Shown: one piece after another, positions 24,263-34,493 of the stretch
Layout: each line of letters starts with the position of its first letter
Position numbering within the stretch: the stretch's first letter is position 1
Source: Kofleriaceae bacterium
GTDB lineage: Bacteria > Myxococcota_A > Polyangia > Haliangiales > Haliangiaceae
Length of the DNA: 40,582 bases
Direction of reading: 5' to 3'
NCBI GenBank assembly: GCA_018058095.1
Contig: JAGPCO010000069.1
Coordinates: 1 to 40,582, forward strand
The notes under the pieces: model-generated
Database searches by the model: none
What the model was told of the DNA's origin: nothing
The model's input: only the letters and a program-made list of their open reading frames with translations
Position numbers and translations under genes: made by a program

Positions 24263-25090
24263 ATGAGGCTCACCATCGCTCTTGTCATCCTGTGCGCGAC
24301 TACCACCGCCTACGCCGACGAGTACAGCAACCTGTCGCATTCGATCTCCGGCGCCTGGGGCGCCCTCGCCGACGGCAGCTACGCCCTGGTCGGTGATGGC
24401 AGGGTCGACCCGCCTCGGTGCGAGATCATCCTGGCTGAGCTCACGGAAGCCGGGGCGACCGACGCCACCACCTTCACGTTCCTGAGAACGTCGCGTGACC
24501 TCACCGCCGGCACCCACACGATCGGCGAGGCCCGGGCCGCCTGCGCTCAGATCTCCTACTGGTCGAAGGTGCGGGCCTTCCGCACCGAGGCGCTTCAGTC
24601 CAGTCAGTACGGCAACCTGGAGATGGCCAAGCGCTGCATCGACACCTACGCCGTCATCACCAAGGCCGGCGTGCCGGCGACCGAGGTGGTGGCGAACGAG
24701 ACGGTCAGCATCAATGGCAAGGTCCAGGAGTTCGGCGGCACGATCGAGGCGATCCGGGTCAAGCACTGCGACGGCGCATATCAGAAGTACGCCGACGAGC
24801 AGGCCCAGCGCGAAGCGCCCTACCGCAAGGTGCTCAAGGCCGACAAGCTCGAGGCCGCGCTGTCGGGCCGCTTCTGGATGTTGCCGGGTGGCGTCGAGGG
24901 CGCCAACGATCCGAAGAAGCTGGCGGCGGCCAAGGTGTGGTTCTACACGCTGACCCCGGCCGACGGCTCGAGCCGCTGCCTGGGCCAGGAGATCACGCTG
25001 CACCGCTGGCAGTTCGACGCCAAGCACAAGCTGCGCAAGACCACGCAGAAGACGTTCTGCGGCGACCCGCCGCGCTCGGCGTACCGGTGA
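24263..25090 (+). CDS. Secreted protein, first gene of the lipid operon
   Basis: 275-aa protein with a cleavable signal peptide (predicted cut after ATTTAYA, residue 18). The mature part is mostly helical and charged (KYADEQAQREAPYRKVLKAD), has seven cysteines and lacks a recognised catalytic motif. Its TGA overlaps the GTG of the acyl-CoA dehydrogenase gene, so it is translationally tied to a fatty acid/polyketide pathway, perhaps as a periplasmic partner or carrier for the product. That role is inferred from context; the family is not recognised. Confidence 0.7.
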   Translation: MRLTIALVILCATTTAYADEYSNLSHSISGAWGALADGSYALVGDGRVDPPRCEIILAELTEAGATDATTFTFLRTSRDLTAGTHTIGEARAACAQISYWSKVRAFRTEALQSSQYGNLEMAKRCIDTYAVITKAGVPATEVVANETVSINGKVQEFGGTIEAIRVKHCDGAYQKYADEQAQREAPYRKVLKADKLEAALSGRFWMLPGGVEGANDPKKLAAAKVWFYTLTPADGSSRCLGQEITLHRWQFDAKHKLRKTTQKTFCGDPPRSAYR

Positions 25091-26250
25091 GCACGAGCGA
25101 CGAACGATCGCCGGAGCGGTTCCGGGCTCAGGTACGGGTCTTCGTCGAGCGCGAGGTCGCCCCACACGCCGAGCGCTGGGCCCGCGAACGCTCGGTGCCG
25201 CGCGCGCTCCACACGGCGGCCGGCGCCGCCGGGCTGCTCGGCCTGAAGTACCCGACCACGCTGGGCGGGACGGCGCGGCCGTACGCCTTCACCGAGGTGA
25301 TGCTCGAGGAGTTCGGGCGATCGGGCCACATGGGCTGCCTGCTCAGCCTGGTGCTGCAGTCGGAGTTCGCGACGCCACACCTGGCGCTGTACGGCGGCGA
25401 GGTGCTGCAGCGGCGTTTCCTCGCCCCGGCCATCGCCGGCACCTGCGTCGTCGCCATCGCCATGACCGAGCCCGAGGGTGGCTCCGACCTGGCGCACCTG
25501 CGCACCACGGCCACCCCGGTCGACGGCGGGTATCGCGTGTCGGGGCGGAAGTGGATGATCGGCAACGGCTCGCTGGCCGACGTGTTCCTGGTGGTGTGCC
25601 GCGACGAGGCGCCGGCGCCGGCCGGCCTGCCGCGGGCGACGATGATCCTGGTCGAGGCCTCGACGCCGGGGCTGGTGGTGTCGCCGCCGATCGAGAAGAC
25701 CGGGCTGCTGGCGACGCCCAACTGCGAGGTCACGTTCGACGACTGCGTGGTGCCGGCCGGCCACGTGCTGGGGCGGCCCGGGCTGGCGCTGCCGCTCGGG
25801 ATGGTCGCCAACGCGTACGAGCGGGTCGCGCTGGCGCTGCTCGCGCTCGGGGCGATGCGGGCCGGCTGGGACAGCGCGGTACAGTTCCTCACCACCCGCG
25901 GGCTGCTCGACCGGTCGCCGTGGCGGCACCGCCTGACCGAGGACTGGATCACCATGCAGGGCGTCGAGCGGGTGGTGCGCGCCGCCGCCGCCAGCCTGGC
26001 CGAGGGCCGGCCCGACCAGGCCCTGGTGCTGACCGCCAAGATCGCCGCGACCGAGGCCTGCCACGAGGTGCTGGCGCGGGCGGCGCAGGCCCACGGCGCG
26101 CGCGGGTTCCTGCAGGGCGAGCTGGTCGGGCGGCTGCTGGCCGACGCCCGCGCGCTGACGGTGGGTGGCGGCGCGACCGAGGCGCTGATGGACGCGTTGT
26201 CGCGGGTGGTGCTGGCGCCTCGAACGCGGCTGCAGGAGAGACCCCGATGA
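25087..26250 (+). CDS. Acyl-CoA dehydrogenase family protein
   Basis: 387-aa flavoprotein: N-terminal helical domain, a beta-barrel FAD segment with AIAMTEPEGGSDLAHLRTTA and SGRKWMIGNGSLADV, then the C-terminal helical domain. Catalytic Glu is absent from the medium-chain position near the C-terminus (GGGATE aligns with YEGTSQ of MCAD), while Glu245 in NAYERVALALLALG aligns with the base of isovaleryl-CoA dehydrogenase-type enzymes, so it is probably active by that residue. The usual product is an alpha,beta-unsaturated acyl thioester; here the substrate may be an acyl-ACP from the coupled ligase and ACP genes. The GTG start overlaps the preceding stop codon, and its own stop codon overlaps the next ATG. 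Confidence 0.88.
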   Translation: MSTSDERSPERFRAQVRVFVEREVAPHAERWARERSVPRALHTAAGAAGLLGLKYPTTLGGTARPYAFTEVMLEEFGRSGHMGCLLSLVLQSEFATPHLALYGGEVLQRRFLAPAIAGTCVVAIAMTEPEGGSDLAHLRTTATPVDGGYRVSGRKWMIGNGSLADVFLVVCRDEAPAPAGLPRATMILVEASTPGLVVSPPIEKTGLLATPNCEVTFDDCVVPAGHVLGRPGLALPLGMVANAYERVALALLALGAMRAGWDSAVQFLTTRGLLDRSPWRHRLTEDWITMQGVERVVRAAAASLAEGRPDQALVLTAKIAATEACHEVLARAAQAHGARGFLQGELVGRLLADARALTVGGGATEALMDALSRVVLAPRTRLQERPR

Positions 26251-33045: not shown

Positions 33046-34493
33046 AGGCGATCGTCATCGGCGCCGGCGGGGCAGGGCTGGCCGCGCTGGCGGCGCTGCG
33101 GCAGGCCGGCGCCGAGGTCGTCGCCTTCGAGCGTTCGGGTGTGCTGGGCGGAGTGTGGGCGGCGACGCAGTACCCGGCGCTGACCATCCACTCGCAGTCG
33201 TTCAACTACCGCTTCCACGACTTCCCACCGGTCGCCAGCGCCGGTCCGAGCGCGACCCGCGACGAGGTCCTGACCTACCTCGCCGCGTTTGCCCGGGCCA
33301 AGGGGGTGGCCGAGCACATCACCTACCACCAGCGGGTCGACCGCATCGTGTACCGACCCGGGCGGGCGCCGCGCTGCCTGGTGGCGGTGACCGACCTGCG
33401 CAGCGGTGAGTCGCACACGCACGCGTGCGACGTGGTGGTGTGCGCCACCGGCTTCTCCAACGCCGGCCGCCCGCACGTCCCGGCGCTGCCAGGCCGCGAC
33501 GCGTCGCACGTCCGAGTCCTCCACTCGAGCGAGGTGACCGCGGAGGTGCTCGACGACGTGCGGGCCCGGCGTCGCCGCGTCGCCGTGCTCGGCGCCGGCA
33601 AGTCGTCGCACGAGCTGCTCTCGCTGTTGCGCGGGGCCGACCCGACCTGGATCTACAGCAAGAGCCTGTGGGCGCTGTCGTACGAGGTGCTGTACCCGGC
33701 GTCGGGGCTGCCGTGGAACGTGCTGTGGTACCTGTACTACCAGCGGCTGACCCGGCTGCGCCGCCGCCTCGGCTTTGGCCGGGTCATGAAGGCGCTGCAG
33801 GCGCCGCTGCGCTGGTCGGGCCTGTTCGTCAACCCGCTCGAGCCGCGCTCGGACCTGTGCGTCAACCGGGCGGCGATCATGAAGCGCGACCAGCTGGCCT
33901 ACCTGCGCACCGTGCGCAGCGTGAAGGCCGAGGTGACCGGCCTGGGGCCACACACCGTCGAGGTTGCCGGCGGCCCGGCCATCGAGGCCGACCTGCTCAT
34001 CTGCGCGACCGGGTACGACCGCAGCGCCTGGCTGCCCGAGGTGGTCATCGAGGCCGCCGACGGCAGCGTGACCCGGCACGACCTGGCCGCGCAGCACGGC
34101 TTCTACAACCAGATGATCGATCCTGCGGCGCCCGCGGTGTCGGTGCTGGCGGCCAGCGTGTTGTACCCGCAGCAGCTGGTCGGTTACTCGCTCGGCGCGC
34201 AGTGGCTGGCGCGGTTCCACACCGGCCGCCTGGCCCGGCACCCGACCGCGGCCGAGATGCGGCGGTCGATGGCGGCCGACGCCGCCCGTTTCTCGCCGTG
34301 GGTGTCGGGCGCCTACCTCAGCAACGGCCTGCCGTACGCGCACGAGCGCAACGAGGACGTGTTGCCGCGCCTGTTCACGCAGCTGGGCCTGCCGGCGGGC
34401 CTGGCCCGCCTGCTCGTCATCCGCGGCGCCGACCCGCAGAAGTTCGCCCGCCTGTGTGACGACGTCGCCGCCCGCCTGGCGGCGACCGCGTGA
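33042..34493 (+). CDS. Flavin-containing monooxygenase (class B type)
   Basis: 483-aa flavoprotein. FAD dinucleotide motif GAGGAG at 7-12, a ATGF motif with the following NAGRPHVPALPGRDASHV, which is a relaxed form of the FMO/Baeyer-Villiger fingerprint (FxGxxxH) with one additional residue, and NADPH motif GAGKSS at 184-189. A second CATGYD lies near residue 325. Such enzymes oxygenate a nucleophilic atom or a carbonyl. The ATG overlaps the stop codon of the megasynthase, so the substrate is probably the released lipid aldehyde or a derivative; whether it forms an ester, an acid or a hydroxylated product is not known. It is the last gene of the operon. Confidence 0.88.
   Translation: MKAIVIGAGGAGLAALAALRQAGAEVVAFERSGVLGGVWAATQYPALTIHSQSFNYRFHDFPPVASAGPSATRDEVLTYLAAFARAKGVAEHITYHQRVDRIVYRPGRAPRCLVAVTDLRSGESHTHACDVVVCATGFSNAGRPHVPALPGRDASHVRVLHSSEVTAEVLDDVRARRRRVAVLGAGKSSHELLSLLRGADPTWIYSKSLWALSYEVLYPASGLPWNVLWYLYYQRLTRLRRRLGFGRVMKALQAPLRWSGLFVNPLEPRSDLCVNRAAIMKRDQLAYLRTVRSVKAEVTGLGPHTVEVAGGPAIEADLLICATGYDRSAWLPEVVIEAADGSVTRHDLAAQHGFYNQMIDPAAPAVSVLAASVLYPQQLVGYSLGAQWLARFHTGRLARHPTAAEMRRSMAADAARFSPWVSGAYLSNGLPYAHERNEDVLPRLFTQLGLPAGLARLLVIRGADPQKFARLCDDVAARLAATA

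What the first reader, a model, noticed from the sequence alone, without database searches (positions are those of the whole stretch)
24263..34493. Fully coupled lipid-polyketide operon with reductive release and a flavin oxygenase
Six genes (secreted protein, acyl-CoA dehydrogenase, FAAL, ACP, KS-KR-ACP-reductase megasynthase, flavin monooxygenase) are joined by start/stop overlaps at every junction (GTGA, ATGA, 22 nt, GTGA, ATGA). Family knowledge: a FAAL loads a fatty acid on an ACP, a KS extends it, a KR leaves a beta-hydroxyl, and a reductase releases an aldehyde or alcohol. Inference: with the dehydrogenase acting first, a single extension would give a 3-hydroxy-4-enal that the monooxygenase then modifies. 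The combination, headed by a secreted protein, is not a pathway I recognise.
Basis: partly seen in the sequence, partly recalled or inferred. Interest (0 to 1): 0.82.

Follow-up and report, generated by a model that had tools for sequence, protein, structure and literature searches.

The report
Lipid mini-assembly-line missing its loading domain
A Myxococcota bacterium carries a six-gene operon that should activate a fatty acid, add two carbons and release it as an aldehyde or alcohol, but the synthase has lost the domain that supplies the two-carbon unit, so it probably borrows the cell's ordinary fatty-acid enzyme FabD for that step.

Summary
Six + strand genes (24263-34493) encode a secreted protein, an acyl-CoA-dehydrogenase-type flavoprotein, a FAAL, an ACP, a KS-KR-ACP-reductase synthase and an FMO-like flavoprotein. 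All five junctions overlap; the "22 nt" one can also be read as GTGA (ACP start 27923).

Between KS and KR lies a gutted acyltransferase (about 29671-30177). Its flanks survive, but the GHSxGE serine and the catalytic-histidine region are deleted. KS, KR, FAAL and reductase keep their conserved residues. The genome (97% complete) yields only one AT-family hit, FabD, one type I KS (this one), and an Sfp-type PPTase. The KS is sister to AT-bearing KSs of FAAL-ACP-KS starter modules in other Polyangia, so the AT loss is derived.

Best reading: FAAL loads a fatty acid, the dehydrogenase desaturates it on the ACP, FabD supplies malonyl, one extension and ketoreduction follow, and the reductase releases a 3-hydroxy-4-enal or 4-ene-1,3-diol. 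FabD acting as trans-AT on one AT-less module is published (PMC13096860, PMC12828459).

I found the operon nowhere else; dehydrogenase, FMO and secreted protein lack close relatives. The FMO's role is open. New variant of a known kind.

The parts
24263..25090 (+). secreted orphan protein, 275 aa, signal-peptide-like N-terminus; membership in the pathway is inferred only from the GTGA overlap with the ACAD gene
   Evidence: no Pfam/NCBIfam match; no homologue at E<=1e-8 in 379 Myxococcota genomes
25087..26250 (+). acyl-CoA-dehydrogenase-type flavoprotein, 387 aa; catalytic Glu candidate E245 (YER position, isovaleryl/long-chain type)
   Evidence: PF02770/PF00441/PF02771; best NCBIfam model is prolyl-carrier-protein dehydrogenase, below cut-off; PDB alignment; motif position; best identity in class 37%
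26247..27926 (+). fatty acyl-AMP ligase (FAAL), 559 aa
   Evidence: best PDB hits are all FAALs, 7r7e 468 bits, 3kxw, FadD23/32/28; 0 of 64 conserved columns deviate
27905..28153 (+). stand-alone acyl carrier protein, GLSSL; alternative GTG start at 27923 gives a GTGA overlap
   Evidence: PF00550 1.3e-14; sequence
28150..33045 (+). synthase KS-(AT relic)-KR-ACP-reductase, 1631 aa
28156..29406 (+). ketosynthase domain with C170, H306 and H346 present
   Evidence: PF00109/PF02801; tree; conservation
29671..30177 (+). acyltransferase relic: N-terminal flank with GQGxQ eroded, about 210 profile columns including GHSxGE and the catalytic His missing, C-terminal flank and post-AT linker YPWQRE kept
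   Evidence: alignments; AT profile HMM 37.1 bits C-terminal part and 6.6 bits N-terminal part, best of 255 scored shuffles 4.3; no Pfam AT
30805..31326 (+). ketoreductase domain, TGGLGGLG, S/Y/K/N present
   Evidence: PF08659 3.2e-60
31663..31848 (+). internal acyl carrier domain (GMDSL)
   Evidence: PF00550
31969..33042 (+). terminal thioester reductase, YxxxK present
   Evidence: PF07993, TIGR01746; PDB MxaA reductase 4u7w; alignment A1
33042..34493 (+). FMO-like class B flavoprotein, 483 aa; both dinucleotide motifs present, FMO/BVMO fingerprint largely lost
   Evidence: PF00743 48.6 bits; best phylum match 30% identity
22806..24113 (-). divergent FHA plus sigma-54 activator, possible regulator (inference)
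   Evidence: PF00158, PF00498, PF02954

Best explanation
A compact, reductively released lipid pathway that has lost its own extender-loading domain. FAAL adenylates a free fatty acid and loads the stand-alone ACP. The ACAD introduces an alpha,beta double bond on the ACP. The KS accepts the enoyl chain and condenses it once with malonyl carried by the internal ACP. Because the module's AT is a dead relic, that malonyl is placed there in trans by FabD, the only malonyl transferase found in the genome. The KR makes the 3-hydroxy group and the terminal reductase releases a 3-hydroxy-4-enal, or, if it reduces twice, a 4-ene-1,3-diol. The FMO-like protein modifies the chain or the aldehyde by an unknown oxidation. 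Shown by sequence: gene order, domain identities, intact catalytic residues, AT gutting, absence of another AT hit in the assembly. Inferred: FabD loading, order of steps, product, roles of the FMO and the secreted protein.
For: Domains and junctions. AT relic (AlphaFold gives about 90 pLDDT for most of the KS but under 50 from residue 577 on). Own genome: one Acyl_transf_1 hit, on C97, about 1.3 kb from the FabF-like KS of the same contig; this is the only type I KS; one Sfp-type PPTase. KS, KR, R and FAAL not decayed: 4/80, 1/25, 1/38 and 0/64 conserved columns deviate, within the range of relatives. KS sister to the cis-AT KS of G062 (98/92), which sits in a FAAL-ACP-KS-AT module, as do other near KSs. 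Published precedents for FabD acting on a single AT-less module: barnesin (PMC13096860) and pseudotetraivprolide (PMC12828459).
Against: No experiment. FabD is not linked to the operon and its recognition of this ACP is untested. The window KS has an unusual Leu before the active Cys (A->L, 95% Ala in 73 KSs) and a longer branch (0.69 against 0.47 for its sister). No other copy of the operon exists to show that selection keeps it. 2.8% of the genome may be missing.
Confidence: 0.5

Rival explanations
1. No extension: with the AT gone, KS and KR are passengers. The KS only hands the enoyl chain from ACP1 to ACP2 and the reductase releases a 2-enal/2-enol of unchanged length. The operon then works like the FAAL-ACP-R and FAAL-ACAD-ACP-R reductases seen in related genomes.
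For: KS-less FAAL-ACP-R and fused FAAL-ACAD-ACP-R proteins exist in the class and elsewhere (open frames of 1840 and 1908 aa). AT is dead.
Against: KS triad and KR catalytic residues are intact with no sign of relaxed constraint on conserved columns; FabD supply is precedented.
Confidence: 0.2
2. The pathway is decaying: AT loss was the first step of pseudogenisation and the operon makes nothing.
For: Singleton operon; ACAD, FMO and secreted protein lack close relatives; AT gutted; longer KS branch.
Against: No frameshift or stop in six overlapping genes, GC3 high throughout, conserved columns of the other domains kept. Decay confined to one domain is unlike general decay.
Confidence: 0.15
3. 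A dedicated trans-AT exists in the part of the genome that is missing from the assembly, or malonyl reaches the ACP by self-acylation.
For: Genome 97.23% complete in 227 contigs; self-acylation of an AT-less module's ACP was seen at 25 uM or more in PMC12828459.
Against: Trans-ATs usually lie near their PKS (stated in PMC13096860), and none is in this window; both published single-module cases use FabD.
Confidence: 0.12
4. The AT deletion is an assembly artefact and the real gene has a working AT.
For: Draft genome; no second sequence of this locus was available.
Against: What remains is itself eroded (GQGxQ reads PDRQPLD), there are two separate gaps, and the frame stays open across both.
Confidence: 0.03

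Closest known systems
FAAL-ACP-KS-AT starter modules of Polyangia PKSs (e.g. G062 L256, G239 L257, G198 L258, same-genus G156 L043)
   Same: FAAL, ACP and KS in the same order; KS 54-58% identical and sister in the tree
   Different: those carry an intact AT, continue into longer assembly lines and lack this ACAD and FMO; G156 also has a reductase but about 3.7 kb lie between KR and R
AT-less single modules fed by FabD: barnesin BrnF (PMC13096860), pseudotetraivprolide PipC (PMC12828459)
   Same: one KS-KR-containing module without AT, no trans-AT in the genome, FabD as the candidate or shown loader
   Different: those follow an NRPS and end in a thioesterase; here the starter is a FAAL-loaded fatty acid, the end is a reductase, and the AT is a recognisable cis-AT relic
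Mycobactin lipid cassette MbtM-MbtL-MbtN (FAAL, ACP, acyl-ACP dehydrogenase)
   Same: same three-enzyme logic for an ACP-bound unsaturated acyl chain (family knowledge; MbtN is named acyl-ACP dehydrogenase in the references of PMC5302061)
   Different: mycobactin chain is transferred to lysine, not extended or reduced; MbtN model scores only 64 bits (cut-off 700) on this ACAD
Myxalamid synthase terminal reductase (MxaA, PDB 4u7w)
   Same: best solved relative of the R domain; reductive release
   Different: different chain and context; whether this R stops at aldehyde or goes on to alcohol is not known
Heterocyte glycolipid (hgl) pathway, tetracosane-1,3-diol analogues (PMC11804610)
   Same: polyketide-type chain with a 3-hydroxyl, thioester reductase, 1,3-diol lipids
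   Different: PUFA-synthase-like Hgl enzymes; no FAAL-ACAD start and no AT loss described

Membership tests
Fatty acyl-AMP ligase (FAAL) | closer to solved FAALs than to CoA ligases, with FAAL insertion region aligned | tested here: met
   7r7e 468 bits and other FAALs; CoA ligases near 90 bits; insertion region aligns
FAAL-ACP-KS starter PKS | FAAL and ACP adjacent to a KS of that clade | tested here: met
cis-AT type I PKS module | functional AT with GHSxGE and catalytic His | tested here: not met
   both regions deleted; no PF00698
trans-AT PKS of the classical kind | a dedicated trans-AT gene in or near the cluster | tested here: not met
   only one AT-family hit, FabD, in the assembly
trans-AT PKS of the classical kind | KS in the trans-AT clade | tested here: inconclusive
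   KS is sister to a cis-AT KS, but the set held few true trans-AT KSs
FabD-dependent AT-less module | FabD malonylates the module's ACP | not testable with these tools
   biochemical test needed; genome content is compatible
Thioester reductase release domain | TIGR01746 above cut-off, GxxGxxG and YxxxK | tested here: met
   325 bits, cut-off 213
Acyl-ACP dehydrogenase (MbtN type) | MbtN equivalog score | tested here: not met
   64 bits, cut-off 700; function on an ACP remains possible
Baeyer-Villiger/FMO monooxygenase | FxGxxxHxxx(Y/W) fingerprint between two dinucleotide motifs | tested here: not met
   dinucleotide motifs at aa 7 and 184 present, fingerprint keeps only the His; superfamily membership holds

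The most novel reading that the evidence does not exclude
A cis-AT polyketide module caught after conversion to dependence on primary-metabolism FabD, in a genome whose only type I PKS it is, feeding a new class of allylic 1,3-diol or 3-hydroxy-4-enal lipid whose 4-ene-1,3-diol core would recall that of sphingosine without the amine.
Probability: 0.3. Interest if true: 0.65.

Novelty: new variant of a known kind. Interest (0 to 1): 0.45.

Why it matters
How AT-less modules arise is usually inferred from ancient clades. Here an AT relic with recognisable flanks sits next to a KS whose nearest kin still carry the AT, in a genome where FabD is the only AT found, so the switch can be tested directly with a few purified proteins. 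It also predicts an uncharacterised lipid from a small, self-contained operon.

Tried and rejected
Searching for orthologous operons: FMO in 241 class genomes at 1e-40 and 379 phylum genomes at 1e-15 gave at best about 30% identity over the full length; the five best neighbourhoods fetched hold no PKS or FAAL. FMO pattern scan of 84,980 species found no relative. ACAD best 37% in class. FMO AlphaFold model without alignment was useless (pLDDT 36), so no fold search was run. No sigma-54 or sigma-70 promoter match in the 149-nt divergent region. PADLOC hit for the secreted protein was noise. Plasmid loci fetched as a source of true trans-AT KSs gave few, so the tree cannot place the whole trans-AT clade. 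A paper search for myxobacteria plus FAAL plus ACAD found nothing.

Full report
Observation. The FAAL/ACP junction is a 22-nt overlap if the ACP starts at ATG 27905. A GTG in the same frame at 27923 overlaps the FAAL stop as GTGA and leaves the carrier domain intact, so a uniform series of 4-nt overlaps is equally possible. Pfam and NCBIfam confirm the families. A divergent FHA/sigma-54 activator lies upstream and a convergent RoxA-like cytochrome c downstream, so 24263-34493 is the whole transcription unit as far as gene order can say. The genome belongs to Polyangia, Myxococcota: a locus of a genome labelled same class is identical over 4,125 bases to Nannocystis sp. RBIL2.

Between KS and KR the synthase has no Pfam acyltransferase, yet the stretch is not a mere linker. 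Aligned with AT-bearing modules it keeps the KS-AT linker, the first AT strand and helices with the GQGxQ motif eroded to PDRQPLD, and the helix just before the nucleophile elbow. The GHSxGE elbow through the catalytic-histidine region is missing, and the C-terminal AT segment and post-AT linker (YPWQRE) return. A profile from 38 ATs matches the two flanks at 6.6 and 37.1 bits (i-Evalue 2.9e-11 for the latter); the best of 255 scored shuffles reaches 4.3 bits, and about 210 profile columns in between are unmatched. AlphaFold on a 15-row alignment gives a largely confident KS and under 50 pLDDT for nearly all of the stretch beyond residue 577. This is shown by sequence, with the caveat of a draft assembly.

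Is the rest alive? KS C170, H306 and H346 are present; one KS change is notable, Leu for Ala just before the Cys. GC3 stays 0.90-0.99 through the PKS including the relic. The loss is confined to the AT.

Genome setting. In the assembly (97.23% complete) the AT family gives a single hit, on C97, beside a FabF-like KS on the same contig, which is the expected FabD. The operon's KS is the only type I KS; the other KS-family hits are that FabF and two weak matches, thiolase-like by my reading of their short extent. One Sfp-type PPTase was found. FabD is therefore the only candidate found for supplying malonyl. This is inference, but two recent studies show or indicate FabD doing this for a single AT-less module: in pseudotetraivprolide by enzyme kinetics (PMC12828459) and in barnesin by heterologous expression (PMC13096860).

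Origin. In a tree of 74 KSs the window KS pairs with that of G062 (98/92), which carries a full AT (216 bits) in a FAAL-ACP-KS-AT module; other near KSs come from FAAL-ACP-KS-AT modules too. So the AT loss is derived from a cis-AT ancestor. The set contains few bona fide trans-AT KSs, so the relation to that clade was not tested. A second eroded AT (GAGVGE for GHSxGE) sits in module 2 of a FAAL-PKS in G005 (L044), and tandem ATs occur in others (L259, L260), so AT turnover in such modules may be recurrent (inference).

Mechanism. FAALs use free acids, so desaturation by the ACAD most simply happens on the ACP, as for the mycobactin cassette (family knowledge). The ACAD has Glu245 at the isovaleryl/long-chain base position. 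One extension with ketoreduction would give a 3-hydroxy-4-enoyl chain; the reductase, whose solved relative is MxaA, would release aldehyde or alcohol. The FMO-like protein keeps both dinucleotide motifs but not the FMO/BVMO fingerprint, and its step cannot be named. The secreted protein has no homologue in 379 Myxococcota genomes, and its link is the overlap alone.

Conservation. The operon was not found elsewhere. FMO: no match at 1e-40 in 241 class genomes, best 30% in the phylum, none in the species-wide pattern scan. ACAD: best 37% in class. Reductase: 26 class genomes have strong matches; of the 20 neighbourhoods fetched, only the same-genus G156 has FAAL, ACP, KS, KR and R in one line, with an AT and a longer assembly line. 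Among 80 named loci, Chloroflexota have FAAL-ACP-KS-AT...R hybrids, and FAAL-ACP-R proteins without KS are spread over several phyla. Searches used sampled genomes, so rare orthologues may exist.

Verdict. Real, coherent, and a new variant of a known kind: a FAAL-started, reductively released single module that has lost its AT. Its interest lies in the testable switch to FabD and the predicted lipid, not in a new category of enzyme.

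Noticed in passing
L120 (G033:C39) 5414-10123 and L125 (G145:C1291) 2638-7332: Single proteins with FAAL, acyl-CoA dehydrogenase, ACP and thioester reductase fused and no KS: apparently desaturating fatty-acid reductases.
   Followed up: partly
L044 (G005:C92), module 2, about 1237-4590 minus strand: Second FAAL-PKS in the class with an eroded AT (GAGVGE instead of GHSxGE, histidine region missing); module 1 has a truncated AT followed by an intact one.
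   Followed up: partly
L259 and L260: Tandem AT domains in ACP-KS starter modules of Polyangia.
   Followed up: no
L118, L119, L122, L175, L195, L202, L238, L244: FAAL followed by reductase without KS in Polyangia, Cyanobacteria, a Gemmatimonadetes MAG, Legionella and a Planctomycetota MAG: a widespread fatty acid reductase layout.
   Followed up: no
window 38805-40298: Aldehyde dehydrogenase gene downstream of the operon, same strand, beyond the convergent cytochrome gene; could act on a released aldehyde, untested.
   Followed up: no
window 34539-36329 (-): RoxA-like (rubber oxygenase family) cytochrome c protein convergent to the operon.
   Followed up: no
window 20116-24113 (-): Ser/Thr kinase with TPRs beside an FHA/sigma-54 activator, divergent from the operon: a possible kinase-activator pair.
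   Followed up: no
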